A stretch of DNA of 64,000 bases from Pedobacter cryophilus. GTDB taxonomy: Bacteria > Bacteroidota > Bacteroidia > Sphingobacteriales > Sphingobacteriaceae. The stretch spans positions 1-64,000 of the forward strand of contig NZ_SWBP01000007.1 of NCBI RefSeq assembly GCF_005116455.1. The letters run 5' to 3'. A model generated the notes under the pieces. The model did not search any database. It worked only from the letters and a program-made list of their open reading frames with translations, and had not been told where the DNA came from. Position 1 is the first letter of the stretch. Each line of letters starts with the position of its first letter. A program made the position numbers and the translations under genes. This document shows positions 3,197-64,000 of this stretch, in pieces.

Positions 3197-3245
3197 GTTT
3201 TTATCGTTAGTATCCAAAATCAGAAATTTAAATTTTAAATAAATC

Positions 3246-11572: not shown

Positions 11573-11610
11573 TTGAGAAAAGGTTTATAAATGGTTTACA
11601 ATTGATTAAA

Positions 11611-11620
11611 CAATCGATTG
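11611..11620. promoter_or_regulatory. LacI-type operator upstream of GH67
   Basis: CAATCGATTG, the 10-bp core of the recurring palindrome, 39 bp before the aguA start codon and inside the 111-bp gap between aguA and the LacI gene. At this distance it would overlap the promoter or early leader. Confidence 0.65.
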
Positions 11621-19718: not shown

Positions 19719-19727
19719 TTCTCAGTC

Positions 19728-22604: not shown

Positions 22605-22664
22605 TAAGATAATTGATTAGAAACATAAATGAAGTAAATCAACAACATTGACAATACAAATTAA

Positions 22665-23753
22665 TTAAAACTGAGTTACTGCTCCAAAAGCTTTCTTAGG
22701 TTTTAAATTGGTATCAAAAAGTAAAGGGAAATTCTTTCTTCCACGTCCATCTAACCAAGTGTAACGGTCAGATACATTCCAGAAAGTAACTCCAGTGATG
22801 TTCTTTTTGTATTTTCTAAACACTTCAAAAACCATTTGATACTTTTCTAATTGCTTTTGCTCCATTTCTGGTGTAAAAACCGCTTTTGTGGTATCGCGTT
22901 GTCCTCTTATGATTTGCCCACCTTCTCTACCAGAATAAACAGAAATATCTAACTCGGTAAATTGAATTTGTAAGCCTAAAGAAGAAAACATAGTGATTGA
23001 TTTTTCTAACTCTTCTCTTGATGGATTACTTATCGACCAATGCGCCTGTAAACCAACTCCATGAATAGGAACTCCAGCATCTAAAAATTTCTTTAACATG
23101 TTGTAGATTTTCTCTCGTTTTGCTGGTTGCTCGGTATTGTAATCGTTGTAAAACAAAATGGCTTTAGGGTCGGCTTCATGAGCGTACTCAAAAGCTTTGG
23201 CAATAAATTCTTCGCCTGCGATATCTAAAAAGGATGTTTTTCTATAAATCTCAGGCCCATCAGCTATTACTTCATTCACCACATCCCAAGCATAAATTTT
23301 ACCTTTATATCTTGATACAACGGTTTGAATATGCTCTTTCAATCTTTTGTACAACATTTCTTTATCGATGGTTTTACCTTCAGCATCGGTAAAAAACCAA
23401 CGAGGCGATTGCGTATGCCAAACCAAGCAATGTCCCCTCACTTTCATTTTATTCTCTAAACCAAAATTCACAATGGCGTCAGCATCTGTCCAGTAGTAAC
23501 GGTTTTCTTCTGGATGAATGGGGCCCATTTTCATGGCATTCTCGGCGGTGATGCTACTAAACTGTTGTTTGATTAATTCGGCTTCCTCTCCTTTAATAGA
23601 TCGTGGGGTAAGAGCCGCACCTACTGGGAAATACTTTTTGTAATAATCTTTAAGTCCTTTTTCCTTTTTAAAAGTATAGGCGCTAAAAAGCTGCGTTAAG
23701 AAGACAATAGCAACTAAAGCTATAGATCCAATAAATAGTTTGCTGATTTTCAT
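22665..23753 (-). CDS. GH10 endo-beta-1,4-xylanase
   Basis: A 362-residue GH10 enzyme with an N-terminal signal sequence (about 1-26). The acid/base Glu is in AWDVVNEVIAD (near residue 158) and the nucleophile in IQFTELDISVY (near 266). The RGHCLVWHTQSPRWF block and C-terminal WNVSDRYTWLDGRGRKNFPL are typical. It is the last gene of a three-gene unit GH3-CE15-GH10, 9 bp after the CE15 stop codon. It resembles the GH10 at 18654 closely over its whole length, which suggests duplication within the locus. Confidence 0.94.
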   Translation of the reverse strand: MKISKLFIGSIALVAIVFLTQLFSAYTFKKEKGLKDYYKKYFPVGAALTPRSIKGEEAELIKQQFSSITAENAMKMGPIHPEENRYYWTDADAIVNFGLENKMKVRGHCLVWHTQSPRWFFTDAEGKTIDKEMLYKRLKEHIQTVVSRYKGKIYAWDVVNEVIADGPEIYRKTSFLDIAGEEFIAKAFEYAHEADPKAILFYNDYNTEQPAKREKIYNMLKKFLDAGVPIHGVGLQAHWSISNPSREELEKSITMFSSLGLQIQFTELDISVYSGREGGQIIRGQRDTTKAVFTPEMEQKQLEKYQMVFEVFRKYKKNITGVTFWNVSDRYTWLDGRGRKNFPLLFDTNLKPKKAFGAVTQF

Positions 23754-50800: not shown

Positions 50801-51940
50801 TTGAGAACCTTTTGCAAATGAAGTAACAACGGGTGCTTTTAAACTGTAATTATCAAAAGGGTTGCTTTGCTTTAAATGAAAAATAGGTAAGTTTTTATCG
50901 TATTTATTTACTCCGCCTTGGTAGGTGCCTAACCAATGGATATCATCTTTATCAATAAAAACATACCGAATAGATTTGGTGGATAAGCTGTTTTTATTTC
51001 TACTATCAGGGAAGTAATTAGAAATTTTATTGGTTTTGATATCCAAAATATTCAATCCTTCATCGGTTCCTATCCATAACTTTCCCCCTTTATTTGCGGC
51101 TACATGATAAATCAATTTATCATTTAAATAGGTATTAATGGTTTTAGAGTAGTTTATAAAATTGACTCGATTGTTACCCAAGGTAATCAGCCCATCATCA
51201 GTTGCAAACCAAATATTATGATAAATATCCTCGGTTATGCTTTTTACAGCTTTGTTAGACATTCCTTTTGGAACAGCCGAATTGGCATCAAAGGTGGTGA
51301 ATTTTTTTCGGTTATTATCAAATAATAGCAACCCACTTGAAGTCCCAATCCAAATTCGCTTTTTACTATCTTCAAAAAAACAAAGTCCTATTTTTGAGGC
51401 CGTAAAGGGCGAGAGTTCATTGGTGATTTTAGACTTAAGAATATTCTCATAATTTGGATTTATGTAGGTTAAACCACTAAAATGACCTATCCAAATTTTA
51501 CCAAAACTATCTTCGTTTATAAATCTAATGATGGGATTAATTTGATTGGCTTTTTCATCATTCAAGAAATTTATAAAACAGTCTTTTTTTCTATCATAAA
51601 CACTTAAAGAACCTCCGTCAGTACCAATCCATAAGTTACCTTTTTTATCCTCATAAAGTGCCGAAACTGCATTAACAGGTAAACTTGTTTTATCATTTTG
51701 CTTATGGCGATAAACAGTAAAATTAGTGCCATCATACTTATTTAAGCCATCCTCGGTACCAAACCATAAAAAGCCATATTTATCTTTTGCAATTACATTT
51801 ATGGTGTTTGATGATAAGCCAGATCTTGAAGTAATGGAGGTGAAATTTATCTCATTGTTTTGACAGTATGCTTGATTTGCAATAAGCAAGCATACCACAA
51901 CAAATGAAAAAAAAGACTTATTAAACAAATAGTTTAACAT
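47804..51940 (-). CDS. Hybrid two-component system sensor/regulator (HTCS)
   Basis: A 1378-residue membrane regulator that fuses sensor kinase and response regulator. Signal peptide (about 1-26); periplasmic sensor of two seven-bladed propellers made from Reg_prop repeats (LWFGTEDGLNKYDG and similar, about 35-700); Y_Y_Y domain (about 725-790); one membrane helix (about 795-820); HisKA with FLTNLSHEFRTP (His near 870); HATPase with NLLSNAFKFT, DTGIGI and GSGIGLSIA; receiver domain with VVSDISMP (Asp near 1171) and the Lys in YLTKPF; AraC-type HTH (about 1275-1375). It lies directly before the xus operon, as HTCS regulators of xylan loci do, and probably senses xylo-oligosaccharides and activates the locus. 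Confidence 0.95.
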   Translation of the reverse strand: MLNYLFNKSFFSFVVVCLLIANQAYCQNNEINFTSITSRSGLSSNTINVIAKDKYGFLWFGTEDGLNKYDGTNFTVYRHKQNDKTSLPVNAVSALYEDKKGNLWIGTDGGSLSVYDRKKDCFINFLNDEKANQINPIIRFINEDSFGKIWIGHFSGLTYINPNYENILKSKITNELSPFTASKIGLCFFEDSKKRIWIGTSSGLLLFDNNRKKFTTFDANSAVPKGMSNKAVKSITEDIYHNIWFATDDGLITLGNNRVNFINYSKTINTYLNDKLIYHVAANKGGKLWIGTDEGLNILDIKTNKISNYFPDSRNKNSLSTKSIRYVFIDKDDIHWLGTYQGGVNKYDKNLPIFHLKQSNPFDNYSLKAPVVTSFAKGSQSNLVYVGTDGGGLHLYDKKTGLFNHISIQANENYLNDLPIQALEKDKSNQLWIGTFSLGLFRYHTTTKAIKQFKKGNSDLSLSSNDVFAIKEDRKGNVWIGTNGNGLNVYNPLTEKIKKFSNEKDANQFSFLSSAYIRSIGEDKFGNIWIGSHGSGLGVYNPQSESIQVYTVNNSKLPANIVLSVLVTNSGEVLVGSMGGGVSIFNAKTKAFTSFSEEQGLANSVIYKLIEDKHGLIWCSTNLGISSFNLKTKKFKNYNFHNGLQNNNYVLGAGLLQTDGTVFFGGLDGLNYFDPSKLKIDEIIPRVILTELKIANKTINPGPDSPLEEHISIAKRIEIDYKQSFSINFVALDYTTPQQNKYSYKLEGFEKKWNFVESSKTASYTNLSPGEYVLKVRASNINGVWNSNPTSIIIYVKPPFWLTIYAYLFYLIAAVSILFYIRHRGIQKLKFDFALEQEKLKAKQQIEEERREAERLHEFDELKIKFLTNLSHEFRTPVSLIMGPVDQLIQHEKDSPYHFQLKIIRRNARRLLNLVNQLLDFGNLKTHEQKLNLAEGDFISFSKELSDSFKDLAERKQINFEFKSGIAFYFTSFDHDKIERILFNLLSNAFKFTLKGGEILLKIEESDGSQGIKLSVSDTGIGINPENKDKVFDRFFQDDSSKSILNQGSGIGLSIASEFVKMHGGTIEVESIIGKGSQFTIHFPFQRLTNLPVSEEEFESIDDESNVSILEDNSGLNIPDATLPVVLLVEDDDDFRFYLKDNLQSFYKIIEASNGKEGWQKVLSAHPQLVVSDISMPYFNGIELCSKIKSDKRTNHIPVMLLTALTGEENQLLGLETGANDYLTKPFNFEILNIKIRNLLTLNQRLRNTYSKQIKVSTTEVAVESQNEKLLNKVLQYIEDNLNNSQLSVEDMSKSIGMSRGSLYSKLLELTGETPVEFIRSVKLDKAAVLLEKSDLNVAQICYSVGFATPNYFARAFKSRFNMLPSEYINLKRNELNS

Positions 51941-52174
51941 AATTAAGCGTAATCCTCATTAAAATTTGAGAAATGAAATTGGTTTATATTCTGATTCTAG
52001 AAACGAAAAGGAAATCGCTTTCAAGAAAAAAATATTGGTTTTAACAAATATATATTAACCATTGAAAACTATACAATAAATATAAAATATTAAAAACATA
52101 AGTTTTAATAGACTTCAATGTAGAAAAAACACTAAATAAACTTCTATTCACACAACACTTTAAAAATTAGCTGC

Positions 52175-53860
52175 TTACTTAAAAGTCTCGTCATTTCCGC
52201 TATAATTAAACCACTTAAACTGTGCTGCATTGGTTGATTTAACACCTAATGAAGTGGTGTACATGCCGTATAATGCGCCAACAAAACCTCCTGCTACTCT
52301 GGTGCTTAAAAATTTACCGTCCAAATCTTTACCAAGTGTTTGCCAATCGTTCTTTTTTGTTGCATAAGAAAAAGAATATTTATCCTTATTTGAGTTGATT
52401 TTTAAATAAACCTTTTTTACCGGCTCATTAAAAGAAGTTTCTTCTATCAAATCCATCTCTTTTGTTTTAGGGTTACTTTTAAAAAGTTGGATGACCTCTT
52501 TGCCATTTTTTACAGATTTACAGATGTAGTAAAAATGCGTTTCGTTTTGAAAAATCGTTAAGCCTGCTTTTTCATTATCCTGCTTTGCAGAAAAATCCAT
52601 TTCGACAATAGCCTCGCTTGTTAAATGCTGTTGACGTTTACCTAAAAAAGATGGGTTTGCAGCGCCCATAATAGTTTCTGGGCTTAAATTCATGGTTAGG
52701 TAATTTTTGCGAGTTTGTAAGCTGTACCAATCGGCTTTATTAGTTCTCAAGAATAAAAATTGTGAGTTTAATGAATCTTTAAAATCAAATTTATAATCAA
52801 AATTTCCGTTCAATGGAATTGAATTTTTAAACTTATGTTCTTTCCAGCTTACCGGATACTCGTATAAAACTTCTTCATTATCTGGGTTGATAACCGGCCA
52901 ACCATCAATCCATTTTACTGGAGCAATAAAGGTTTCTCTTCCTGTATTATAGTAATCCCCCTCATAAGGTCTAACTGCAATAAAAATGGCATAAGTTTTT
53001 CCATCAGGTCCTTCCACTAAATCAGCATGACCAGTAGAAGTGATAGGATTTTTACGATTAGGATCTAAATGTCTTTGGGTTAGAATAGGATTTTTTTCAT
53101 AAGCAATGTAGGGTCCTCTCGGATTTTTACTTCTCAGCACAACTTCAGAATGGTTAACCGCAGTGCCACCTTCGGCAGCCATTAAATAATACCAACCTTC
53201 TCTTTTGTAAATATGTGGGCCTTCTATCCAAATAGGTTTTTTACTGATATCAACTCCGCCGTTTACTAAAAGCGTTTCTTCTCCTATTACTTTTAAATTA
53301 ACTGCATCAAACTCATACATTCTTAAAGTTCTATGTCCGCTGTATAATGATTTATTATCTGGTGGATTACTATTATAAATGATGTAAGCTTTATTATCAT
53401 CAAAAAATAATGAAGGATCAATTCCTCTTACTTCTCTTATATATACTGGATCACTCCACGGCCCAGCCGGATTTTTTGCCGTAACCACAAAATTTCCACC
53501 ATTATCTATATCCGTACAGGTTACATAAAACAAACCATTATGGTAATTAATGGCAGGCGCAAATAATCCACGACTAACAGTTTCTCCCATAAAATCCATT
53601 TGTGAAGGCCTAGTAATTACGCTTCCTATCTGTCTCCAATTTTTTAAATCTTTACTGTGTAAAACTGGTAAACCAGGAAAAAATGAGAAAGTAGAATTAA
53701 CCACATAATAATCACTTCCTACTTTACAAATTGCAGGATCGGGGTAAAAACCAGAAAGTATTGGATTGGGTAGCGTAAGTTGAGAAAATGCTTTAGAACT
53801 AAAAAAAGTAAGAGCGAAGATTAAAGAGGTGTACGAAAAAAGCTTTTTGTAAATCATCAT
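52175..53860 (-). CDS. GH43 beta-xylosidase/alpha-L-arabinofuranosidase with C-terminal sandwich
   Basis: A 561-residue secreted enzyme. The ATG at 53860 gives MMIYKKLFSYTSLIFALTFF and cleavage near AFSQ; longer starts would put 25 charged residues before the signal. The propeller acids are Asp in FYPDPAICKVGSDYY (near 40), Asp in GIDPSLFFDDNKAYI (near 147) and Glu in WIEGPHIYKREGWYY (near 213). A C-terminal DUF1349-like beta-sandwich (about 345-555) is usual for this GH43 branch (subfamilies 10-12). It removes xylose or arabinose from oligosaccharides. A direct repeat (GTGCAAAT, GTACAAAT), also found before xusA, lies about 150-190 bp upstream. Confidence 0.9.
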   Translation of the reverse strand: MMIYKKLFSYTSLIFALTFFSSKAFSQLTLPNPILSGFYPDPAICKVGSDYYVVNSTFSFFPGLPVLHSKDLKNWRQIGSVITRPSQMDFMGETVSRGLFAPAINYHNGLFYVTCTDIDNGGNFVVTAKNPAGPWSDPVYIREVRGIDPSLFFDDNKAYIIYNSNPPDNKSLYSGHRTLRMYEFDAVNLKVIGEETLLVNGGVDISKKPIWIEGPHIYKREGWYYLMAAEGGTAVNHSEVVLRSKNPRGPYIAYEKNPILTQRHLDPNRKNPITSTGHADLVEGPDGKTYAIFIAVRPYEGDYYNTGRETFIAPVKWIDGWPVINPDNEEVLYEYPVSWKEHKFKNSIPLNGNFDYKFDFKDSLNSQFLFLRTNKADWYSLQTRKNYLTMNLSPETIMGAANPSFLGKRQQHLTSEAIVEMDFSAKQDNEKAGLTIFQNETHFYYICKSVKNGKEVIQLFKSNPKTKEMDLIEETSFNEPVKKVYLKINSNKDKYSFSYATKKNDWQTLGKDLDGKFLSTRVAGGFVGALYGMYTTSLGVKSTNAAQFKWFNYSGNDETFK

Positions 53861-54407
53861 ATCAATTAATTTGTAATTGCGTTTAAATTTAGTTTTGGTA
53901 GAGCCAGCATACTCATGCTTATATATTTGACACAAAACGAGTATAAAAGCTCTTTTTGAAAATTGGTCTTAAATTTTATAACTAGTGAGGTAAAAGTAAT
54001 TTTATCGACTGTGCAAATACCTGTCAATTGTGCTAAATGATAGTACAAATGTTCAATCTCAAATTGATTACAAAATTTAAAAAAAGATTGCCTAATCATA
54101 AGCCTTTAATTATCAGAAAGAAGCGAAAAAAATTTATAATTTTAAATATCGAAGAAACAGTTAGAACAAATTTTAATTGATGTTTATATAATCCAAGATT
54201 AAACCAAAAAAAACAGAGTCTTGGGAGGACTCTGTTTTACCAATTAAAAGATATATAACCTAACATTTAATGAGGTATAAGATTTAAATTAGAACAATTC
54301 ATCTTATCCTCACAAATAATAACCGCAACAATATTACCTAACACAGCTACTTTGGCATTTCTCAATTTATCAAAATGATGGAACTTATGTTAAACTTATT
54401 TATTAGA
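53861..54407. other. Gap between two GH43 genes: putative HTCS sites and terminator
   Basis: No credible gene; a 77-codon minus-strand frame at 53866-54099 has no recognisable features and overlaps the GH43 promoter area. It holds GTGCAAAT (54011-54018) and GTACAAAT (54043-54050) and the hairpin terminator at 54203-54238. Confidence 0.5.
54203..54238 (-). terminator. Terminator downstream of GH43 (54408-55976)
   Basis: On the minus strand AAAACAGAGTC (54238-54228) pairs with GACTCTGTTTT (54220-54210), loop of 7, followed by a run of Ts. It is about 170 bp past the stop codon. Confidence 0.75.
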
Positions 54408-55976
54408 CTACTTAATAATCTGATTTTCTATTCGGTAAAAGTCAAAATCTACAAAGCCACCTGTATTTTTGGTTGAATAATTAAATAATCCATATCTATA
54501 CCCCATAAAATGTGGAATGGTATAACTCATTTTTAATGGTTTGCCAATAGCGTTCCAGATTTTACCATCTAAACTGTAAAAGAAGTTTGCTACATCTTTT
54601 CGATTAGTAAAATCACAGTCTGCTTTTAAATAAACTATGTTTTGCGTTAAGAGTACTTTTTCTTGCTCAACCGCTTTACCACTTTCTGCATTCACAACAA
54701 CAATAGATTTTACTCCATTTTCATACTTTACACCTACTAAACCATACTTACTTTGCAGTAAAGCTAGGCCTGCAAAATCGCCATCTTTCATATTGCTTAA
54801 CTCAATTAATGTATTTGCTGATGATTGCGGACCAATAGTGCGTTGTGTTAACGTATTTTTAGCTTGTAAAAATGCGGTGTCTAATCTGCCTGTTTTAAGT
54901 CTTAAATATCCTTTACGCTCCGTAACCGACCATAATTGATGATCTGGATTGTGATTCCATTGCCAAACTAAAGGCAAAGCTTTATCTTTCTTTTTGCGCT
55001 TGAATTTGTCAGACGCAACAATATTAGGAATTAAGCCTTTGCTTGCTGGTAATTCTAAGGTTTGAGGAACTTTTCCGTTTTCGCCTAAGACAGGCCAACC
55101 ATCTTCCCACTTTACTGGAACTGTGTAAGGAATACGACCAACAGAACCAAAATCTCTAAACAAATAAGCGTACCAAACACCTTCAGGCGAATCAATTAAT
55201 CCACCTTGAGCAATACCCATATCTTGCAAAGCAACTCTGCCCTCATAAGGACCGTTGATATTATCAGCTCTATGAATTACAACTGTACGCATTCCGCCTC
55301 TAGGCCAAGTAATGTTTACCAAATAATATTTATTGTTTACTTTAAAAAGTTGAGATCCTTCTGCAGGAAGACCTCCATTTGAACCCGATGGAGCACTTGC
55401 ATTTTCAATAATTACCTTTTCTGAAGTCCCAGGTCTTACTCCAGAAACATCTTCATTAAGTTCAACCAATTTAATTTTTCCTGCTCCGTAAACTAAATAT
55501 ACCTTTCCGTCATCATCAAAAAATAAAGAATGATCATGATAACTCGGTCTAAATGAAATTGATTTCCAAGGACCTTTTTCTATATTATTTGTGCTATAAA
55601 TATGTGTTTTACCAGTGCTCTGAGAAAAAGTGCTTACATAATATATTCCTTTATGATACCTAAAACTACTCGCCCAAGAACCTCGCCCATAAGTATTTTT
55701 TCCATTATCGAGATTCAATTCATCGTTACTTTCTAAAACATCATAAGCATAACTCACCAGTTCCCAATTCACTAAATCTTTTGATTTCATGATAGGTAAA
55801 CCCGGGCTCATGTGCATGGTAGTGCTACTCATATAATAAGTATCGCCAACCCTAATCATTGATAAATCTGGCACATCAGCAAACATGATAGGATTTTGAG
55901 CTCTTGATTGCGCCCAACTTTGATTGTTGGCTAGTAAAAAAAATAATGCAACAATACTTAAAAATAATTTTTTCAT
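54408..55976 (-). CDS. GH43 alpha-L-arabinofuranosidase/beta-xylosidase (subfamily 12-like)
   Basis: A 522-residue secreted enzyme. The ATG at 55976 gives the signal peptide MKKLFLSIVALFFLLANNQ cleaved near SWAQ; an ATG at 56000 adds eight residues. Catalytic acids: Asp in MFADVPDLSMIRVGDTYYM (near 38), Asp in SYHDHSLFFDDDGKVY (near 150) and Glu in PAEGSQLFKVNNKYY (near 208). The 'ADVPDLS' opening is characteristic of GH43_12 arabinofuranosidases rather than the 'ADPs' of xylosidases. A C-terminal DUF1349-like sandwich covers about 320-520. It is followed upstream on the same strand by an esterase gene with an 83-bp gap and may be co-transcribed with it. Confidence 0.9.
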   Translation of the reverse strand: MKKLFLSIVALFFLLANNQSWAQSRAQNPIMFADVPDLSMIRVGDTYYMSSTTMHMSPGLPIMKSKDLVNWELVSYAYDVLESNDELNLDNGKNTYGRGSWASSFRYHKGIYYVSTFSQSTGKTHIYSTNNIEKGPWKSISFRPSYHDHSLFFDDDGKVYLVYGAGKIKLVELNEDVSGVRPGTSEKVIIENASAPSGSNGGLPAEGSQLFKVNNKYYLVNITWPRGGMRTVVIHRADNINGPYEGRVALQDMGIAQGGLIDSPEGVWYAYLFRDFGSVGRIPYTVPVKWEDGWPVLGENGKVPQTLELPASKGLIPNIVASDKFKRKKKDKALPLVWQWNHNPDHQLWSVTERKGYLRLKTGRLDTAFLQAKNTLTQRTIGPQSSANTLIELSNMKDGDFAGLALLQSKYGLVGVKYENGVKSIVVVNAESGKAVEQEKVLLTQNIVYLKADCDFTNRKDVANFFYSLDGKIWNAIGKPLKMSYTIPHFMGYRYGLFNYSTKNTGGFVDFDFYRIENQIIK

Positions 55977-56059
55977 GTTTTGATAATGAGTTATTTGCAA
56001 TCATAACATCCTAGTTAGGAAGCTCTGATTTGCTATAGTAATTTAAGATTTTGAAATGG

Positions 56060-56953
56060 CTACCATCCATATTTCTTCATCCAATCGTAAAATGGAAGCA
56101 TCCAAGTATCATGTTTAAAAATAAAACCATGACCTCCTTTTGGGTAAATATGCAATTCTGTTGGGACCTTTAGTTGTTTCAACCTTTGGAAATAAACTAT
56201 ACTGTTTTCTACATCTACCAAAGTATCATCTGCTGCATGTATCACATACGCAGGCGGACTTTGAGCATTTAATTGCATCTCGTTTGAAAAATTATCTAAT
56301 ACACTTTTAGAAGGATTTTTGCCAAGTAAATTGGTTCTAGAATCAGGATGCGTTAAGCTATCCCGCATGCTGATTACAGGGTAAATTAGAACTTGAAAAT
56401 CGGGTCGAAGGTTGATTTGATTTCCATTTTCGATTAATGATTCTTGATAATGCGTTGCTAAGGTTGATGCTAAATGCCCTCCAGCAGAAAAACCCATCAC
56501 GCCCACTTTATTAGGATTAATACCCCATTTTAAGGCATTCTCTCTGATTATTTTAATGCCTTGTTGCGCATCTTGAAGAGGTCCATTTTTTTTATCAATC
56601 ATTAATTCATCATCAGGTAATCTATATTTTAAAACGAAAGCTGTGATCCCTCTGCTAGCTAATTGCTTTGCCGTATTCACTCCTTCTCCATCATAAACTA
56701 AAACTTTATATGAACCACCGGGGCAAATTAAAATCGCTGTTCCGGTTGCTATGTCCTTTTCAGGAATAAAAACTTGCAATGTGGGTTTAATTACTTGAGA
56801 AATAATACCTGCTTTTGAAACCTCAACAGTTTCATTTGAAATAGGCTTTTTAGAATTTGGAATCTCCTTGGGATATAAATCAATAAAATTTTGAGCTGTT
56901 GTTTTGAAAGTACTTAATAAAATAAAAATGCTTACAATTAAAAGTGCCTTCAT
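56060..56953 (-). CDS. Secreted alpha/beta-hydrolase, probable acetylxylan/feruloyl esterase
   Basis: A 297-residue alpha/beta-hydrolase with signal peptide (about 1-20, ending TTAQ). The oxyanion motif ILICPGGSYKVL, nucleophile GFSAGGHLAS (Ser near residue 154), acid Asp in HAADDTLVDVENS and His in YPKGGHGFIF form a complete triad in the usual order. It resembles the small esterase of the BD-FAE/Axe type found in Bacteroidota xylan loci (CE1-like or unclassified). Substrate (acetyl or feruloyl xylan) cannot be decided from the sequence. It is the last xylan-locus gene; the accessory region begins about 280 bp upstream of it. Confidence 0.85.
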   Translation of the reverse strand: MKALLIVSIFILLSTFKTTAQNFIDLYPKEIPNSKKPISNETVEVSKAGIISQVIKPTLQVFIPEKDIATGTAILICPGGSYKVLVYDGEGVNTAKQLASRGITAFVLKYRLPDDELMIDKKNGPLQDAQQGIKIIRENALKWGINPNKVGVMGFSAGGHLASTLATHYQESLIENGNQINLRPDFQVLIYPVISMRDSLTHPDSRTNLLGKNPSKSVLDNFSNEMQLNAQSPPAYVIHAADDTLVDVENSIVYFQRLKQLKVPTELHIYPKGGHGFIFKHDTWMLPFYDWMKKYGW

Positions 56954-57193
56954 TTTTGATTTCGTTTTTTATAGTTTATGTGGAAAATAAAACCTTCCAA
57001 ACTCTTATGATTTTGATTGCTTTTAATATTTAGCCTGAGTCAAAAATAGTTTTTTGTAAGAGATTTGAATAGGAGGATAGTAAAAACTAATAGCCTAAAT
57101 GTTCAATTTGACTTTTTTGAAAAGGATTATTTTTAATAGATTTATTTACGGTTAAAAATAATAGCAGAGGGAAAATAGAAATTTATATAAAGC

Positions 57194-57226
57194 AAAAAGC
57201 CGCTAAACTTATCGTAAAGCGGCTTT
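57194..57226 (-). terminator. Terminator at the left edge of the accessory region
   Basis: AAAGCCGCT (57196-57204) and AGCGGCTTT (57218-57226) form a 9-bp stem. The minus strand continues into Ts, so it would end the DUF3883 operon, or originally a tRNA whose acceptor end it follows. Confidence 0.75.
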
Positions 57227-57237
57227 GTAGCCCGTAG

Positions 57238-57349
57238 GGAAAAACGAACCCAATTTTTGTCTATTTAAAGTGCCTTTACTAACCAAAAACACCTGTTTTC
57301 TGTTCACAAATGTTCAAATCCTTTTACCCAAAAAATTTACCCTATTTTA
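57238..57349. repeat. 112-bp direct repeat, copy 1
   Basis: It matches 61394-61505 at 111 of 112 positions (only T versus C, in GAACCCAATTTT[T/C]GTC). It begins GGAAAAACGAACCC and ends with CCCTATTTTA, just past the stop codon of the DUF3883 gene. GTAG also matches seven bases to the left (57227-57230 and 61383-61386), leaving a 7-bp variable spacer CCCGTAG. Confidence 0.95.
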
Positions 57350-57356
57350 AATAACT

Positions 57357-58652
57357 CTAAATTATCTTTTTTGCTCTCATACTTATCTTATAAGCAGTAG
57401 GACTAATATCTACGCCCACATTTTTTGGTGAGAATGGATTACCCAAATCCCATATTTTAGGGGATAAACTAAATATATCGAATACATAATAAATACAGTA
57501 ATTTGAAAGAGTTTCGGCTTGAGACAATTCGAAGGCAGTTATAAAGAAATTGGGGTCAGCCTTCATTTTTGAGGTTGACTTAACTTCAATATACTTCTTC
57601 TTATTATCTAAAGTCCAAGATACAATATCATAACCTAAGCTATCATTTTTTCTAGCAACCCATTTAACTTTCTTTGCTAAATCAGGTCTCCCATTTTCTA
57701 TTAAATATTCTTTTTCCCATATTTCGACGACATGCTCTCCACGGTCACCAATAGCTTTATTCCTAAGGTTTAATTTCTCATAATTTTTCTTTTTTAATAA
57801 TAGCGAGCTTCTTCTTTTTTTATCTGGAATGATAAAGTCTTTGTCTATTTCTAAGCCTGTGATAAAACTAGGATTAAGTTTACCTATTTCTGGAAATTTA
57901 GGAGCTTTATCCTCTTCATTATTTAAGCTAGTATTATATAAATACGTATAGAGTTCATCATTTATGAACATTGCAAATTTCATTAAAGACCATGGTTTCA
58001 TTACATCGTCTTCATTTTTCCATTTTATTAGGCGTAATTGATTGTAAATTGGTTCTTCAATAAGACTAGCTTCGTCATCCAAATTAAAATACATCAGTAT
58101 TTCATTTAGATACTCTTTTGAATATATGCTTAAATATTGGTTTGGGAAGTATGTCGCTAACAATTTACCTTTAAACTTATCTGGTATGATTGAAAGAGAA
58201 ATACTTCTGTAGTCGTGATTTAAGCCTAAAATTAATAGGTCGGAAATTTTATGCTTTAAATTTTCAAATGCTGTATTGAAATCATTTCCATACTTATTTG
58301 TGATTCTATACTGTTTTTTAGAATTTTTTCCATATTTACCATAATATGCTCCATATTGGCTTGCGTTACTACCTGAGATTTTACCAAAGTTTTCTAGTTT
58401 TTTTTCCATCCAATAACAAAAGCTTTCTATGTCATCAACATACCTCCTTCCAAGGACATATTCTTCCTTTGTGAGGTCTTTTAAACTCTTAATTGGAAAT
58501 TCGACATAAAAGCTTGCTAATAGGCTTTCTATTTCATTTATTCTTCTATTATCGAAATAATTTAAAAACCTTATTTGGTGTTCTCTAAATATATCAGTTG
58601 TCATTTGGCTTGAAGGGTGAAATTGAAGATAGGTAAAGTTAGGGCTCGACAT
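57357..58652 (-). CDS. DUF3883-domain protein, predicted PD-(D/E)xK nuclease
   Basis: A 431-residue cytosolic protein. The C-terminal third (about 295-425) is a DUF3883/NOV domain: GDRGEHVVEIWEKEYL, then DSLGYDIVSW and KKYIEVKSTSK. The Asp followed by E-x-K is the active-site pattern of the PD-(D/E)xK nuclease fold. The N-terminal two thirds are not recognised; they are charged and aromatic-rich (YGAYYGKYGKNSKKQYRITN near 110), perhaps a DNA- or modification-reading module. DUF3883 proteins are common in restriction and anti-phage islands. I took the ATG at 58652, just after the upstream stop codon; an ATG at 58679 would overlap that gene. Last gene of a four-gene unit. Confidence 0.75.
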   Translation of the reverse strand: MSSPNFTYLQFHPSSQMTTDIFREHQIRFLNYFDNRRINEIESLLASFYVEFPIKSLKDLTKEEYVLGRRYVDDIESFCYWMEKKLENFGKISGSNASQYGAYYGKYGKNSKKQYRITNKYGNDFNTAFENLKHKISDLLILGLNHDYRSISLSIIPDKFKGKLLATYFPNQYLSIYSKEYLNEILMYFNLDDEASLIEEPIYNQLRLIKWKNEDDVMKPWSLMKFAMFINDELYTYLYNTSLNNEEDKAPKFPEIGKLNPSFITGLEIDKDFIIPDKKRRSSLLLKKKNYEKLNLRNKAIGDRGEHVVEIWEKEYLIENGRPDLAKKVKWVARKNDSLGYDIVSWTLDNKKKYIEVKSTSKMKADPNFFITAFELSQAETLSNYCIYYVFDIFSLSPKIWDLGNPFSPKNVGVDISPTAYKISMRAKKII

Positions 58653-58663
58653 GTCGATATGTT

Positions 58664-59623
58664 TTAAAAATAAAACCAAAGAGTGCTATCGAATTTTATC
58701 GGGGTTAGGTTTTTTATTTTTTCAAAATCATGCCTTAATTCGACTGGATATAAGGTTTGAAGTTGAATGACCCGTTCTTTTGACTTCCCCTTCTTGTTAA
58801 ATTCAATTTCTTTAAACCACAATGCAAAATGAGTATCATCCAATTTAAAAAAAAGCTTCTCTTTGTCAAAGCTATTACAATCTACTACTAAAGAGTAATT
58901 TTTTAACATTTCTAATATTTGCTTTGGTAGGTTTTTATGTTCAAAATGTTTAATAGTGTGATAAGATTTTTGTTGATGTTCCATGACTGTCTCAGCAAAG
59001 TGTCTAAAAAGAACATGAATATAAACATAGCTATCAATTACAAACTTATGATTACATATGTTAACAATATCTTCTTTACTATTTCCCTCATCATAGTATT
59101 CAAGAACCGTTAAATAGAGAAATTTACTATGCAAAATTAAACCCTTTCTCAAAAAATTGAAATGATTACTTCCAAAGTGCATTTGGGTGCAATAACTTTT
59201 TAAAGATTTTATCTGCCTATTGGTTTCTATTGCGATATGCCTTTTAATTTCATCAGTTAGACGAAGGTTTTTAATGACAGTTTCTTCCCAAGATAAGAAA
59301 TGCTGATTTAAAAACTCAGCATCTTTTCTTTTTTGAGATTGATTTATTTTTCCATCAAAGTCATAAGCATCTCCCCAACCTTCATGATTATTTATATAAA
59401 GAAGATATTTATCTTGAAATATACAATCGTTACACTGAGAGTATTTTAGGGCATCTATATTTTCATCTCTTTCATTGCGAAATAATTTCAATTTTCCACA
59501 AATATGTCTTGCTTCAGCAATGGTCAATTTCTGATTGGCGTCTAACTTATCTATAAGTTCTTGAGTTATTCTTTGTTGGAGCAAAAAATCCTTATATAGT
59601 AGCTCTTCTCTTGAAAAACTCAT
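58664..59623 (-). CDS. Hypothetical protein, function unknown
   Basis: A 319-residue soluble, charged protein that I do not recognise. Visible features: a short cysteine pair in SQCNDCIFQD (near 83), with another Cys-His region (SYCTQMHFGSNHFNFLRKG near 145) and HVLFRHFAETVMEHQQKSYH near 210, so metal binding is possible. It has no signal peptide and no membrane segment. It is separated by only 2 bp from the small gene upstream, and by about 11 bp from the DUF3883 gene downstream. Co-transcription with a predicted nuclease suggests a subunit or regulator of the same system, but nothing in the sequence proves this. Confidence 0.7.
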   Translation of the reverse strand: MSFSREELLYKDFLLQQRITQELIDKLDANQKLTIAEARHICGKLKLFRNERDENIDALKYSQCNDCIFQDKYLLYINNHEGWGDAYDFDGKINQSQKRKDAEFLNQHFLSWEETVIKNLRLTDEIKRHIAIETNRQIKSLKSYCTQMHFGSNHFNFLRKGLILHSKFLYLTVLEYYDEGNSKEDIVNICNHKFVIDSYVYIHVLFRHFAETVMEHQQKSYHTIKHFEHKNLPKQILEMLKNYSLVVDCNSFDKEKLFFKLDDTHFALWFKEIEFNKKGKSKERVIQLQTLYPVELRHDFEKIKNLTPIKFDSTLWFYF

Positions 59624-59625
59624 AA

Positions 59626-59961
59626 TTAACTAACTTTATAAACATAAAATTTTTTATTCCAGACTGATTGACCTTTGATAACTAAACACTCGTTTTTATT
59701 GTTTTTTGTTGGTCTTACAATTAATGCATCATTGTCCTTCAACAATAATTTTTTAGCTAAATCCAATTTATCAATTTGTGTATCAGCATCAATTTTCCAA
59801 AAAGAATTATTGAATTTAAAATAACCAAAAACGCCTCTATTGCTACCTTTTATTTGACCATCAAGTCTAATATATTCTGGTTTAGATTTCTTTAATGGAG
59901 CAACTAAAGTTTGGTATAGTTCAAAAAATGTTTCGAATCTTTGGGGTTTTGATTTGCTCAT
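59626..59961 (-). CDS. Small hypothetical protein
   Basis: A 111-residue basic protein (MSKSKPQRFETFFELYQTLV...). The ATG at 59961 is preferred; the ATG at 59985 lies closer to the upstream gene and adds eight residues. A predicted alpha/beta fold ends in ECLVIKGQSVWNKKFYVYKV. I find no motif. Its stop codon is 2 bp from the next gene's start codon (59623), which argues for a real, co-translated gene rather than chance. Confidence 0.6.
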   Translation of the reverse strand: MSKSKPQRFETFFELYQTLVAPLKKSKPEYIRLDGQIKGSNRGVFGYFKFNNSFWKIDADTQIDKLDLAKKLLLKDNDALIVRPTKNNKNECLVIKGQSVWNKKFYVYKVS

Positions 59962-60021
59962 AGGTTGTTTTGAGCAATTTAACAATTTTTTACTTTTAAA
60001 GAAACACTATCAATTGAATCC

Positions 60022-60684
60022 TCAATTAATAAACTTATTCTTTTTTGATTTTGTGAAGTTGACAATGACCGAAACTAAAGCAATAAGCCCCAAGACTAAA
60101 ACAGATATTAACTTGAAGTCGATTTTATACGATGTTTTTGAAATCGTATTTAACTCATCTTCCCAATAAATAATACTTTTGTTTTTAGGCACATTCAACA
60201 CAAAATTCTTGATGGAGTCTCTTGAATTTAATGGACATCCAGACATATCAATCTCGACACTTTTAAGCTTTGAAGTTTTGTAAAAAGTGTTTTTTCTCTC
60301 TGTGTTCTTATGACGATGAAAGATTTCAAAATAGATTTGAACGCCATCTTCAAGCTCTGCTGAAACATCCGGTCTAAATGATTTCAATGGTTTTTCTGAA
60401 GTTGAGTTTCGATAATTTAGTTTTTCATATTTTGGGAACACCATAGATTCACTTTCCACAATAATTTCTTTTGCCAATTTGTGTAAAGCTGTTTCTAAGC
60501 CCCCAGAACAATCAGAATCACTATGGTGACTGAAATGCCAATCTTTCTTTTTTCCTTGATTTGCAATTAAAGGCTCTTTACAGCCAAAGCAAGTGCAACC
60601 ACAAGCAAGTCCATTGCCGGAATCTCTAATATGTAAAGCCTTTTGAGTACTGGTATGAAGTCCTATTGTGATTTTTGCTGACAT
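60022..60684 (-). CDS. CoiA-like zinc-ribbon/nuclease protein with C-terminal membrane anchor
   Basis: A 220-residue protein. The N-terminal part (about 18-70) reads like the CoiA zinc module: CGCTCFGCKEPL followed by KKDWHFSHHSDSDCSGG, with Cys and His ligands. A nuclease-like core follows (RPDVSAELEDGVQIYFEI, about 123-140), as in the restriction-endonuclease fold of CoiA. Unlike competence CoiA, it is short and ends in a single hydrophobic helix (LISVLVLGLIALVSVIVNF, about 194-212) and a lysine-rich tail, so the nuclease would be membrane-tethered. First gene of the unit that ends with the DUF3883 gene. A 36-bp element conserved with the next operon lies about 100 bp upstream. Confidence 0.75.
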   Translation of the reverse strand: MSAKITIGLHTSTQKALHIRDSGNGLACGCTCFGCKEPLIANQGKKKDWHFSHHSDSDCSGGLETALHKLAKEIIVESESMVFPKYEKLNYRNSTSEKPLKSFRPDVSAELEDGVQIYFEIFHRHKNTERKNTFYKTSKLKSVEIDMSGCPLNSRDSIKNFVLNVPKNKSIIYWEDELNTISKTSYKIDFKLISVLVLGLIALVSVIVNFTKSKKNKFIN

Positions 60685-60781
60685 TCAATAACTCTAAGTA
60701 TAAATTACTTCGTTTCACTAAATTAGCATGAATTTCCCAACTTTACTTAAAAACCAATAAGATTATCAGTTTAGCCCCCAA

Positions 60782-60817
60782 TCGTTGCGCTCTCAAGCTA
60801 TTAATTGACTTAAATTG
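60782..60817. repeat. 36-bp upstream element, copy A
   Basis: TCGTTGCGC-TCTCAAGC-... TTAAATTG matches 62949-62984 at 29 of 36 positions. Both lie upstream of minus-strand operons (98 bp before the CoiA-like gene, 235 bp before the HTH gene). Confidence 0.7.
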
Positions 60818-61173
60818 AGAGTTCCGGTTCATCTCATCTCTCAATTTTAAAGTTCTAAAGGTTTGTTTGAATCTGGGATAGATATGATATTCTCATCAAA
60901 CAATTTTAGTCATCAAAGCTCAAGCTTTCAAACAACCAATGCTTGGTTATGTGTTAAAACAGTTCTCTTTTATTGGAAACATGGTATTTCCATGAATCTT
61001 TCATCACTTCCTTTGAAGTTCCTACATTCAAATAATCATTTATTCTACATAAATCATAGTAGTATAATTACACTTATCCCCTTTGGGGACAAGCGTAATT
61101 AACTTTGGGAATTTAAAGTGAGTATAAAACATAATTTCTTCAATGCTCAAAGAGCAAAAATTTAGCTTTAAAG

Positions 61174-61198
61174 TCTTTTTAACTGTTCGTTTGTTCGG
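61174..61198. repeat. 25-bp repeat, copy A (remnant of zinc-ribbon gene 3' end?)
   Basis: Identical to 63644-63668. In copy B the minus strand encodes the tail PNKRTVKKK of the zinc-ribbon protein; here the same frame reads PNKRTVKK and then runs into unrelated sequence. It may be a truncated copy of that gene or a recombination block. Confidence 0.8.
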
Positions 61199-61393
61199 AA
61201 AGGTTCTTTGGGTTTGATGAATCAAGTTGATTGACTTGTTATTCTGATTCGAGTGCAGTAGATTATTAGAGAAACTGTTTCATATAATAGTTTTACTCAA
61301 CTCAAGATCAACGAAAACTGATAAATTCTGAGGTATAAAAAAAACGCCGACAATATTAAAATGTTGATTATCAGATCTTTAAGTAGACAGCAT

Positions 61394-61505
61394 GGAAAAA
61401 CGAACCCAATTTTCGTCTATTTAAAGTGCCTTTACTAACCAAAAACACCTGTTTTCTGTTCACAAATGTTCAAATCCTTTTACCCAAAAAATTTACCCTA
61501 TTTTA
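61394..61505. repeat. 112-bp direct repeat, copy 2
   Basis: It matches 57238-57349 at 111 of 112 positions and supplies the stop codon (61503-61505) of the HTH gene. The 7-bp spacer between GTAG and the repeat is ACAGCAT instead of CCCGTAG. Confidence 0.95.
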
Positions 61506-62714
61506 CTTATTCTTATTATAGAATGAAATAAGTGCCCAATTGGATTTGTCATGATTTGTTAAATCTTGATCGTACCTTAAAAAATTATTCTCAGTTTTTA
61601 CGTTTTCAATTAGCAAACTATTTGGGTCTACATCAAGGAGCCATTCATCCGAACCTTCTAAAATAGGATCAAACCAATTAGCCTTTTTTCTAGCCCATTC
61701 AATCCAAGCCATCAAATCCTCTGTTAAAACGTTATTCGCAACAGCATTTTTTTCAACTTGAGTAATATAATCCCGAAGCAAAACAACCTCATTCCATCGT
61801 CTAGAATCATTTAAGACTTTTCTAAAAGAACTAAGCTCAAGTTTTTTCCGATGCTCAAATTCTTGAGCTAACTTCCTTTCTTCATCATATTTACGATGCC
61901 ATTCTTCATTTTTAATACGTTCTATCTCCAATTTTCTACCAAATAGTTCAAGTTTTGCGACTAATTTAGATACTTGTAATTCAATTGGTATTTTTCCATC
62001 CTTACAAGATACTGAAGCTCCAAAGTGTTCGAATTTTAAAATTAAATTCCCATTGGGTCGAAGATTGGTTCTCTCCCAATTGTATTCTTTAACTATTTCT
62101 TTTGTTTGAGATTCTCTAAAAGTCATTTTAACATTCTCACCACCAAGTTGAATAAAACTCTCTCTTTCAGAGACTTTAAATCCAACCCCTCTTTTGCGCA
62201 TAATCTTAATAAAAGTATTTAGAATACATAGTGTTCGATTTAAGTTCTCAGGAGTTACTCGGACATCAAGTACATTTAAGCCGGGAAATGATAACTCACC
62301 TAATTTGTGGAAATCCTTCTTTTTTTCTAATGATTTTTCTAAACTAAGAATTAACGGGTCGGGATCTATTAAAATACTAGGAACTGATAAATCAAGAGAT
62401 AAATCTTGTTCTAGTGATTTTTGTATTGTCATTTGCTCAGAGAGTTCAGATTCAATTATATTCCCACCTTCTCCCCTTATCGATAAACTGAGTGAATCCT
62501 CATCCTTTTCATTATCTAGGAATGGTTTAACTTCAACTTGCTTACCTGCTCTAACTTTACTCCAATATCCTGAATCAGGCAATGGAATATCCATTCTAAT
62601 ACATGCCTTTCTTAAACCTACATCTGAAATATTGTATCTTTTAGAAATAGATAAAAGAGATTCTGACCATACCAACTCATAAAGCTGTCGTCGATTAAAT
62701 AAGATATTATTCAT
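61503..62714 (-). CDS. HTH-domain protein of unknown function
   Basis: A 403-residue soluble protein. I prefer the ATG at 62714 (MNNILFNRRQLYELVWSESL): the residues before it in the open frame have no family-like character. The N-terminus has a helix-turn-helix (RRQLYELVWSESLLSISKRY, NISDVGLRKACIRMDIPLP) followed by GYWSKVRAGKQVEVKP, a motif block that recurs in hypothetical proteins of several phyla. The middle (about 185-260) is a beta-rich region, and a long charged coiled segment follows (IKNEEWHRKYDEERKLAQEF, about 265-300). No enzyme motif is seen. It stands alone, its 3' end fused to the second 112-bp repeat. DNA binding is likely; the role is unknown. Confidence 0.7.
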   Translation of the reverse strand: MNNILFNRRQLYELVWSESLLSISKRYNISDVGLRKACIRMDIPLPDSGYWSKVRAGKQVEVKPFLDNEKDEDSLSLSIRGEGGNIIESELSEQMTIQKSLEQDLSLDLSVPSILIDPDPLILSLEKSLEKKKDFHKLGELSFPGLNVLDVRVTPENLNRTLCILNTFIKIMRKRGVGFKVSERESFIQLGGENVKMTFRESQTKEIVKEYNWERTNLRPNGNLILKFEHFGASVSCKDGKIPIELQVSKLVAKLELFGRKLEIERIKNEEWHRKYDEERKLAQEFEHRKKLELSSFRKVLNDSRRWNEVVLLRDYITQVEKNAVANNVLTEDLMAWIEWARKKANWFDPILEGSDEWLLDVDPNSLLIENVKTENNFLRYDQDLTNHDKSNWALISFYNKNK

Positions 62715-62948
62715 AATTAAAGCAGATGTATTTACAATACTTCTAAAGCAAAATGGGCAACAACTTGGTTTTGAATTGGATTTTGCCTTCAATGTCTTAA
62801 GTAACTGCAAGATAAAAAATTTCACATTTCTTATAATGCATTATCTTGAATTATTTATTTTTAACCTGCAAAATAAATTAAACATTAAAATAGCACCTTA
62901 TTTGCTTGATATCGAAAAAATCAGGGTAATGTTCAACTCGATGACCAG

Positions 62949-62984
62949 TCGTTGCGCCCCCAAGCAATAAACTGTCTTAAATCG
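62949..62984. repeat. 36-bp upstream element, copy B
   Basis: TCGTTGCGC-CCCCAAGC-... TTAAATCG, 29 of 36 positions shared with 60782-60817. Confidence 0.7.
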
Positions 62985-63502
62985 CAAATCTGCCCTCAAC
63001 TATTTCTTTATTTTCACTTATCCGTTTAGACTTCAAGCTAAAATGTAAGGATTATTTTGACCTTGGGCAATTTAGTTCTGATATGATGATTTGCTTGTGT
63101 TTGTTCAGATCTGATGTTGGATTACATCTATCTCAAGGCTTTTTTCTTTTGTTTTTGGTTTTCTAATTCTTCCCTTGTAGAATATTAGCATTTTGCTTTC
63201 TTAAAGTTATTTGGGAGTAATTTTGGACTTATACTTTGAGATATTGTATTTTGTAGAATCCTTTGGTTTATATAATTAATCTCTGAGATTTAGAGGTTAG
63301 AGTAGAGGTAATCTGGTGTAAACACCAGACACCAGAAACCACTCACCCCCCCACCCCCTCTCTCTCCTTATAATTGGGATTTCTAAAAATACTTTTTGTA
63401 GATTTCTCTCTATTCCAAAGAACCTCTTTTGCTTTTGTCTTTTTAATTCTTTTAAGATTAAAACAATCTTCAGATTAGTATTTGCTAGAGAATATAATAA
63501 CA

Positions 63503-63545
63503 TCACTCCCCGAAAGGGAGTAATGTAAGTAACTTTGCGAATTAA
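63503..63545 (+). promoter_or_regulatory. Hairpin plus Bacteroidota -7 box, conserved with 61064-61115
   Basis: ACTCCC-N5-GGGAGT (63505-63521), then GTAAGTAACTTTGCGAATT with TAACTTTG at 63530-63537. The counterpart in unit A has TCCCC-TTT-GGGGA and GTAATTAACTTTGGGAATT with TAACTTTG at 61100-61107. TAACTTTG fits the TAnnTTTG promoter box, but no TTG is found at the expected distance, so promoter activity is uncertain. Confidence 0.4.
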
Positions 63546-63629
63546 ATTTAACCATGGGCTGTAGTAAATTCAGAAAAAACTTACAGTCCAAAAGAAAATC
63601 AGTTAAAAAAAACTTAAAAAAAATTTAAC

Positions 63630-63962
63630 CTAATAAGAATCCTTCTTTTTAACTGTTCGTTTGTTCGGTTTTGGTATTGGACGTAGAACTATTCCACCAA
63701 AATGAGCCTCTTCAGCTTCGAAAGACATATCCTTAATAAAGCAAATTCTTGACCTTGTTAATTTGCCTGAATCAAGTAACTTACCTTGGCAACCATGTCC
63801 ATCTAATGTAATGTTAAAAAAACCTACACGATGACCTTTGTCATCAACTGCCTTCTTAACACATTTTTCACAGGGATAAATGCGATACCGAGTTGAGGGC
63901 TTAACATATCTATTACAGACAGGGCAATGTTGTCTTTTGGGCAATTCTCTTGGGTTATCCAT
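63630..63962 (-). CDS. Small zinc-ribbon protein, function unknown
   Basis: A 110-residue protein. The N-terminus has two CxxC pairs, HCPVCNRYV (near 14) and YPCEKCVKKAV (near 33), typical of a treble-clef or zinc-ribbon fold; further Cys occur in GHGCQGKLL and SRICFIKD. The C-terminal tail is basic (PKPNKRTVKKKDSY). I do not recognise the family. The ATG at 63962 is the only reasonable start. The last codons coincide with the 25-bp repeat that recurs at 61174-61198. It is likely to belong to the same accessory region and may continue in an operon beyond the window. Confidence 0.65.
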   Translation of the reverse strand: MDNPRELPKRQHCPVCNRYVKPSTRYRIYPCEKCVKKAVDDKGHRVGFFNITLDGHGCQGKLLDSGKLTRSRICFIKDMSFEAEEAHFGGIVLRPIPKPNKRTVKKKDSY

Positions 63963-64000
63963 TTTACTGTATAATTTGTTTTAACTGCTAAATCTGTCGT

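What the first reader, a model, noticed from the sequence alone, without database searches (positions are those of the whole stretch)
57238..61505. 112-bp near-perfect direct repeat bounds a 4.16-kb unit carrying a DUF3883/CoiA-like operon
Positions 57238-57349 and 61394-61505 match at 111 of 112 bases, and both lie immediately after the stop codon of unrelated minus-strand genes (DUF3883 protein, HTH protein). A GTAG also matches seven bases outside, leaving a variable 7-bp spacer (CCCGTAG, ACAGCAT). A conserved 3' end joined to different cargo is what one expects from a family of site-specific mobile units or from a cassette-exchange hot spot. The variable spacer recalls the overlap or coupling sequence of tyrosine recombinases. 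No recombinase is encoded in the window.
Basis: partly seen in the sequence, partly recalled or inferred. Interest (0 to 1): 0.75.

Follow-up and report, generated by a model that had tools for sequence, protein, structure and literature searches.

The report
tRNA-inserted island with doubled right end
The repeated 112-bp sequence appears to be the attachment end of a mobile DNA element sitting in a tRNA gene, present twice because a second, stripped-down relative carrying anti-virus genes lies beside it; that is a known way for such islands to grow, seen here in a little-studied bacterial family.

Summary
The repeat is real: 57238-57349 and 61394-61505 match at 111 of 112 bases, with GTAG seven bases outside. 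A tyrosine integrase lies just beyond the window (contig 64740-65915). The region is a 19.6-kb island: intact tRNA-Glu at one end (76842-76914), and a 16-bp copy of its 3' end (57224-57239) abutting repeat copy 1. Twelve of 399 family genomes, this one included, carry a related integrase. In three of the other eleven (G141, G298/L119, G051) a diverged 112-bp-like end follows the last cargo gene and joins sequence matching a tRNA-Arg 3' end, each time with other cargo. So the 112 bp is the element's right end; its paired GGGTAAA repeats look like integrase arm sites. Best reading: a complete element (copy 2) beside an integrase-less relative (copy 1) carrying a PD-T4-1 anti-phage operon, as in tandem accretion; the variable 7 bp would be the strand-exchange overlap. 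Excision was not shown, and the unit's left side lacks the expected arm sites. The kind is known; this family did not appear in my paper searches. Most novel reading: phage-satellite-like elements that gain cargo by duplicating their own ends.

The parts
57194..57226 (-). terminator-like hairpin just outside copy 1; probably the original tRNA-Glu terminator
   Evidence: read from sequence; the first ~110 bp outside copy 1 match DNA downstream of tRNA-Glu in 2 of 7 relatives' loci at 67-68%
57224..57239 (-). attR direct repeat CCCTACGGGCTACAAA, copy of the tRNA-Glu 3' end (other copy at contig 76839-76854, outside the window)
   Evidence: tRNA-Glu; sequence
57231..57237 (-). 7-bp spacer of copy 1 (CTACGGG on the minus strand), identical to tRNA-Glu; proposed strand-exchange overlap
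   Evidence: role inferred
57238..57349 (-). repeat copy 1: right end of the element, arm-site pair plus core-proximal half site
57324..57342 (-). paired direct repeat GGGTAAA-N6-GGGTAA in copy 1, candidate integrase arm sites
   Evidence: role inferred
57357..58679 (-). PD-T4-1-like anti-phage protein (DUF3883/NO VEIN C-terminal domain), cargo of unit B
   Evidence: PADLOC E 1.2e-68, Pfam PF13020
58664..59623 (-). 319-aa protein of the same operon; homologue in the P. nanyangensis element
   Evidence: no hit in PADLOC or NCBIfam, only a sub-cut-off Pfam match
59626..59985 (-). 119-aa protein; relatives recognised by eye on the right side of four other elements (G141, L119, G254, G386), so probably an element gene
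60022..60684 (-). CoiA-like protein, cargo of unit B
   Evidence: Pfam CoiA_N E 5.8e-8
61040..61107 (-). non-coding motif CAAAGTTA followed by a hairpin, unit B leader (approximate limits)
61174..61198 (-). 25-bp exact copy of 63644-63668 at the 3' end of the Zn-protein gene: remnant tying unit B's left side to element sequence
61199..61382 (-). 184 bp between the copy 2 core and the remnant; origin unknown; begins with a terminator-like stretch; no left arm sites found
61387..61393 (-). 7-bp spacer of copy 2 (ATGCTGT on the minus strand); no matching tRNA found
61394..61505 (-). repeat copy 2: right end of the integrase-bearing element A
61480..61498 (-). arm-site pair of copy 2 (GGGTAAA-N6-GGGTAA)
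   Evidence: role inferred
61503..62825 (-). 440-aa protein with a putative N-terminal HTH (by eye), cargo of element A; function unknown
   Evidence: no hit in Pfam, PADLOC, NCBIfam, PHROGs at the limits used
63480..63537 (-). same non-coding motif plus hairpin in the element A leader (approximate limits)
63630..63962 (-). 110-aa Cys-rich (Zn-ribbon-like, by eye) protein, element gene; the HTH_17 (64100-64645), integrase (64740-65915), TerS-like, Tet_JBP and ParB-like genes and tRNA-Glu follow beyond the window

Best explanation
The 112 bp is the right attachment end of a tRNA-targeting integrative element. The lambda-like tyrosine integrase encoded just outside the window would bind paired GGGTAAA arm sites and a core half-site, and exchange strands across about 7 bp within the tRNA acceptor stem. 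Two right ends stand in tandem because the island is an accretion. Element A (integrase, HTH_17 protein, Zn protein, 440-aa cargo) ends in copy 2. Beside it lies unit B, the right half of a related element (remnant of the Zn-gene tail, leader, CoiA-like gene and PD-T4-1 operon), ending in copy 1 at the chromosomal junction. B lacks an integrase and would be stranded, or mobilisable only with A's help (CIME-like). Copy 2's foreign 7 bp would be an old attachment overlap kept when A or B joined the site. Shown: integrase, tRNA, att repeat, arm-site-like pairs, diverged right ends with other cargo in relatives. Inferred: integrase binding, overlap role, order of events, any present mobility.
For: Integrase with catalytic, SAM-like and arm-binding Pfam domains. 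tRNA-Glu intact at one end and a 16-bp copy of its 3' end at the other. Arm-like pairs at the left end and in both 112-bp copies of G000: 4 pattern hits in 30 kb, one of them outside the island, against 0.4 expected from 20 shuffles. Pairs at both ends by the same pattern in G098, G113 and G386; right end by pattern and left end by eye in G141 and L119. Homologues of the 112 bp directly at the last cargo stop in G141 (E 7e-4), L119 (E 1e-4) and G051 (E 0.002); in G141 and L119 joined to a copy of the local tRNA-Arg 3' end, in G051 to sequence equal to tRNA-Arg(CCT) 3' ends of G000 and G386. G141 and L119 are 91% identical over 4.5 kb, differ in cargo, and resume at 90% over 125 bp of right end. 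The PD-T4-1 genes with the right end align to L119 over 2.75 kb at 71%. The leader of G141 aligns to unit B's left region above all of 100 shuffles (69.5; maximum 65.5). In G113 the two att copies differ only inside the same 7-bp block. The three-step model (integration, decay to CIME, accretion) is in PMC5704250 (passages). A 7-bp overlap is stated for lambda, CTnDOT and NBU1 in PMC2297512 (passages), and mismatch tolerance for CTnDOT and NBU1 in PMC10865867 (passages).
Against: Unit B's left side (61199-61382) has no left arm sites, and the region does not resemble A's left end above shuffles (41.5; mean 41.0). No source for the ATGCTGT core: 0 of 301 genomes with the tRNA-like pattern, and no such end among the tRNAs at 30 of the 36 tRNA places of the own genome. 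Leaders of A and B are about 70% alike over two short blocks; their local alignment (56.5) is reached by the best of 200 shuffles (maximum 57, mean 39.8), and the L119 leader is no better than shuffles (58.0; maximum 73.5). The right ends are 99% identical, so conversion or a mosaic history is needed. Of 13 integrase loci examined, G000 included, only 3 others have a right end homologous to the 112 bp. The arm pattern also hits away from the ends: one extra on the minus strand in G098, one plus and two minus places in G386. No tRNA gene was found in the 40 kb of G051. No exact empty site was found: flanking genes differ in the genus.
Confidence: 0.72

Rival explanations
1. Homologous recombination: a circular relative carrying unit B's cargo crossed over (RecA) within the 112-bp end, leaving the end duplicated on both sides of the cargo, without integrase action. 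This shares the island and right-end parts of the best explanation; the odds are for the route alone.
For: Gives exactly the observed order and lets both cores differ. Related elements show cargo bracketed by duplicated non-core segments: left end in G386 (2997-3242 and 11364-11617, 82%, 8.4 kb apart, no second core) and leader in G141 and its close relative L119 (109 bp, 72-76%).
Against: The 112 bp is short for efficient recombination, and the difference between copies begins exactly at a 7-bp block at the expected overlap, which RecA need not respect.
Confidence: 0.45
2. Local duplication: the right end was copied during a rearrangement that put the 440-aa gene or the CoiA operon in place; no second element was involved.
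For: Near-identical copies were found only here.
Against: Unit B carries a remnant of the Zn gene, an element leader motif and the same PD-T4-1 genes plus right end as the P. nanyangensis element; copy 2 has a foreign core.
Confidence: 0.15
3. The 4.16-kb unit is an autonomous site-specific cassette of a family that spreads on its own.
For: Conserved end, variable cargo, variable 7-bp spacer.
Against: No recombinase in the unit; no array of such units in the own genome; no high-identity copies in the collections searched.
Confidence: 0.07
4. Chance, or a promoter or terminator repeat unrelated to mobility.
For: The copies lie right after stop codons.
Against: The att repeat, arm-like pairs and position at the tRNA junction in several genomes.
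Confidence: 0.02

Closest known systems
tmRNA-inserted defence islands caught by Pseudomonas fluorescens SBW25 (I23, I44, I55; PMC12595487, passages)
   Same: tyrosine integrase, RNA-gene target, short direct repeats, conserved end sequence, varied anti-phage cargo, no recognised transfer genes
   Different: different phylum and target; here the right end is duplicated around a second cargo; transfer not tested
CIME-IME tandem accretion (PMC5704250, passages)
   Same: decayed integrase-less element beside a relative with integrase at one tRNA
   Different: the unit's left side lacks recognisable arm sites and the two cores differ in the proposed overlap
NBU1 / CTnDOT of Bacteroides
   Same: Bacteroidota; tyrosine integrase; NBU1 uses a tRNA-Leu 3' end; 7-bp overlap with mismatch tolerance (PMC2297512, PMC10865867, passages)
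   Different: no relaxase or conjugation genes found here; direct sequence relation to IntDOT or the NBU1 integrase not tested
Phage-inducible chromosomal islands (PMC6092414, passages)
   Same: integrase, HTH regulator, a TerS-like protein, accessory genes near the ends
   Different: the TerS hit is weak, no primase-replication module seen in this member, helper-phage induction unknown

Membership tests
tRNA-targeted integrative genomic island | tyrosine integrase inside | tested here: met
tRNA-targeted integrative genomic island | intact tRNA at one end, copy of its 3' end at the other | tested here: met
   16-bp repeat
tRNA-targeted integrative genomic island | empty site in relatives | tested here: inconclusive
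   outer flank resembles DNA downstream of tRNA-Glu in 2 of 7 relatives' loci over ~110 bp; flanking genes not syntenic
tRNA-targeted integrative genomic island | excision and circularisation | not testable with these tools
   needs PCR or reads
CIME (tandem accretion) | unit lost integrase and transfer genes | tested here: met
CIME (tandem accretion) | retains attL and attR | tested here: inconclusive
   right end complete; core-like sequence on the left but no left arm sites
CIME (tandem accretion) | next to a related element with integrase | tested here: met
   99% identical right ends, integrase in A
IME/ICE | relaxase or conjugation genes | tested here: not met
   no such Pfam hit among the 23 island proteins scanned, which are the ORFs of at least 90 aa judged coding; shorter ORFs and an antisense 162-aa ORF not scanned
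PICI-like phage satellite | TerS homologue (present in some members) | tested here: inconclusive
   phrog_4044 at E 4.3e-5 (G000), 7.7e-7 (L119), 1.2e-6 (G154); no Pfam hit for the G000 protein
PICI-like phage satellite | HTH regulator of the AlpA/MerR type | tested here: inconclusive
   HTH_17 at E 1.5e-5 but below its curated cut-off (25.6 against 27 bits); phrog_66 excisionase/regulator E 1e-5
PICI-like phage satellite | primase/replication module | tested here: not met
   none among Pfam hits of the G000 island proteins; replication-initiator-like proteins beside the integrase in G098, G113 and L120
PICI-like phage satellite | induction and packaging by a helper phage | not testable with these tools
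   needs experiment

The most novel reading that the evidence does not exclude
The elements form an undescribed family of phage-dependent satellites of Sphingobacteriaceae. They carry a TerS-like protein, a Tet/JBP-type oxygenase and a ParB-like protein beside the integrase, and they gain anti-phage cargo as units bracketed by duplicated copies of their own non-coding modules (right end in G000, left end in G386, leader in G141 and L119). Defence genes would then be swapped in and out at fixed slots without disturbing the mobility module.
Probability: 0.18. Interest if true: 0.68.

Novelty: new member of a known kind. Interest (0 to 1): 0.42.

Why it matters
It turns an odd repeat into a delimited, testable element: tRNA-Glu target, 16-bp att repeat, candidate arm sites, integrase and defence cargo (PD-T4-1; relatives carry HEC-05 or a ThsA-like SIR2 protein at the right end, and a Septu-like PtuA at the left). 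It records how such islands acquire and stack anti-phage genes in a family of environmental Bacteroidota for which the listings of my paper searches showed no matching element. The differing 7-bp cores offer a natural test of overlap tolerance in this integrase group.

Tried and rejected
Searching for the 112 bp elsewhere: 0 hits for a 33-base pattern in genome contigs and for a 20-base pattern in viral contigs. Among 301 family genomes, besides the own genome, four weak matches. Two were looked at: L006 an AT-rich 71% match, L007 inside a gene that looks Fic-like by eye, both judged chance; L008 and L009 were not inspected. Looking for a tRNA source of the copy 2 core: none. Looking for a chromosomal source of 61199-61382: six short weak matches in other genomes, one of them in a stretch with a tRNA-Asp, judged chance. 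Testing synteny of the outer flank with esterase and GH43 genes: the esterase homologues lie elsewhere in the genus, and the flank genes did not match the seven tRNA-Glu loci. Phage and plasmid records: three distant integrases at E<=1e-30, 32-36% identity; no viral-contig relative by the alignment search. Rfam, gathering threshold, on L003, L119, L047 and window 50000-64000: only tRNAs. PD-T4-1 operon as a fixed three-gene system: doubtful, because the 110-119-aa gene also occurs in G141 and, by eye, in G386 without the other two.

Misses among the 13 integrase loci: G030 (integrase fragment), G241 and G254 gave no usable right end; nor did G344 and L120; G154's right end was not found (blast over 20 kb, arm pattern over 60 kb). 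Blast with the 112 bp also gave short minus-strand matches away from any right end in L120 (E 0.005), G098 (E 0.013), G254 (E 0.026, two) and G344 (E 0.041), judged chance.
Full report
Observation. The search of the own genome found only these two. Outside each copy stand 7 unrelated bases and then GTAG.

Surroundings. The window ends inside the thing. The same contig continues (126,509 bp) with an HTH_17 protein (64100-64645), a tyrosine integrase (64740-65915), a small TerS-like protein, a Tet_JBP oxygenase, a ParB-like protein and further genes. At 76842-76914 and 76948-77022, both on the minus strand, lie tRNA-Glu and tRNA-Met, then era and der. Reading along the minus strand, tRNA-Glu ends ...TTCCCCTACGGGCTAC. 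Copy 1 ends in ...TTTTTCC and the sequence goes on CTACGGGCTACAAA and into a terminator-like hairpin. The shared CCCTACGGGCTACAAA (76839-76854 and 57224-57239) is the att direct repeat of a 19.6-kb island. The DNA outside copy 1 resembles DNA downstream of tRNA-Glu in two of seven relatives' loci over about 110 bp. The tRNA is a hotspot: in three of the 17 other genomes of the genus (G005, G006, G016) a different integrase, found at E<=1e-40, starts about 250-260 bp after it.

Family. Twelve of 399 genomes of the family, including this one, have a closely related integrase (E<=1e-70); a further one came from Mucilaginibacter terrigena (L120). I examined the flanks of all 13. Targets are tRNA-Glu (G000, G098, G113) or tRNA-Arg(CCT) (G141, L119, G154, G344, G386); G051 is assigned to tRNA-Arg by its right-end sequence only, no tRNA gene being found in its 40 kb. 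G030, G241, G254 and L120 were not assigned. Identical 15-18-bp repeats flank G141, L119 and G386. In G113 the two copies differ only inside the same 7-bp block (CCCGTAG against TCCATAG), an independent hint that this block is the overlap. Paired direct repeats of the type GGGN(A/G)A-N4-7-GGGN(A/G)A occur at both ends by pattern in G000, G098, G113 and G386 and, with the left one recognised by eye, in G141 and L119. In the six regions tested, plus strand, 20 shuffles each gave means of 0.05-0.95. The pattern also hits elsewhere: once outside the island in G000, once on the minus strand in G098, and at one plus and two minus places inside G386.

The 112 bp. Homologues directly follow the last cargo gene in G141, L119 and G051. 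G141 and L119 are the clearest pair: 91% identical through the integrase module and the 110-aa gene, then HEC-05 against PD-T4-1 cargo, then 90% identical over 125 bp of right end. In the other nine relatives no homologue was found at a right end, although G098, G113 and G386 have arm-type pairs there.

Why two copies. Unit B (between the copies) contains an exact 25-bp remnant of the Zn-gene tail, the leader motif, the 119-aa element gene and the PD-T4-1 genes. Its last 2.75 kb, right end included, aligns to the P. nanyangensis element at 71%. So B looks like the right half of a second element. Copy 2's 7 bp match no tRNA found, while the 112 bp beside them are 99% identical; drift confined to 7 bp is unlikely, exchange at a defined block explains it. 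Integrase-mediated accretion and RecA crossover of a circle both give this order. There is a parallel for each: the published CIME model (PMC5704250, passages), and duplicated non-core modules around cargo in G386 and in G141/L119. Of nine elements scanned for internal direct repeats (blastn, E<=1e-8), four have one each (G000, G141, L119, G386), each bracketing what I take as cargo; G141 and L119 share theirs, so these are three independent cases; five have none.

Weak points. B's left 184 bp have no arm sites and no known source. Leader similarity between A and B rests largely on the 25-bp match: 56.5 against a maximum of 57 in 200 shuffles; G141's leader does better (69.5, maximum 65.5), L119's does not (58.0, maximum 73.5). 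The near identity of the right ends against diverged leaders needs conversion or a mosaic past. Nothing here shows present movement.

Literature. Searches on PD-T4-1, tandem accretion, CTnDOT, tycheposons, Pedobacter islands, phage-inducible islands, satellites in Bacteroidota, and JBP with ParB listed no paper that describes this family, judged from titles and abstract starts. I read passages of PMC2297512, PMC5704250, PMC9519451, PMC10865867, PMC6092414, PMC11389934 and PMC12595487; none was read whole. Only open-licence papers are held. That TAnnTTTG is a Bacteroidota promoter box is recalled, not from a call.

Noticed in passing
window 63480-63537 and 61040-61107 (minus); L119 12412; L047 10206; L046 9844: Non-coding motif CA(A/G)AGTTA(C/A)T followed by a hairpin whose stem sequence differs between elements, in all five places after the Zn gene or its remnant. 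Candidate promoter-operator, RNA hairpin or transfer origin. Not seen by the same scan in the other four sequences searched then.
   Followed up: partly
L003 4028-5814 (contig 66028-67814): TerS-like (weak), Tet_JBP oxygenase and ParB-like genes next to the integrase, also in L119; a TerS-like protein and, by eye, similar neighbours in G154.
   Followed up: partly
G386 (contig C5) around the integrase: The left end is duplicated (246 and 254 bp, 82%) around 8.4 kb of cargo, mirroring the right-end duplication studied here.
   Followed up: partly
L003 8403-14550 (contig 70403-76550): Left-side cargo: multiubiquitin, DUF6791, ThiF-like and DUF6527 genes, an HTH plus capP-like M78 peptidase pair, and a dCTP deaminase-like gene.
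   Followed up: no
L048 9246-9318 (G113): A second tRNA-Glu with an acceptor stem altered on both strands (by eye) lies at the element end, possibly compensating a changed 3' end.
   Followed up: no
window 19032-23348: Three diverged inverted repeat pairs (76-83%) over 4.3 kb.
   Followed up: no
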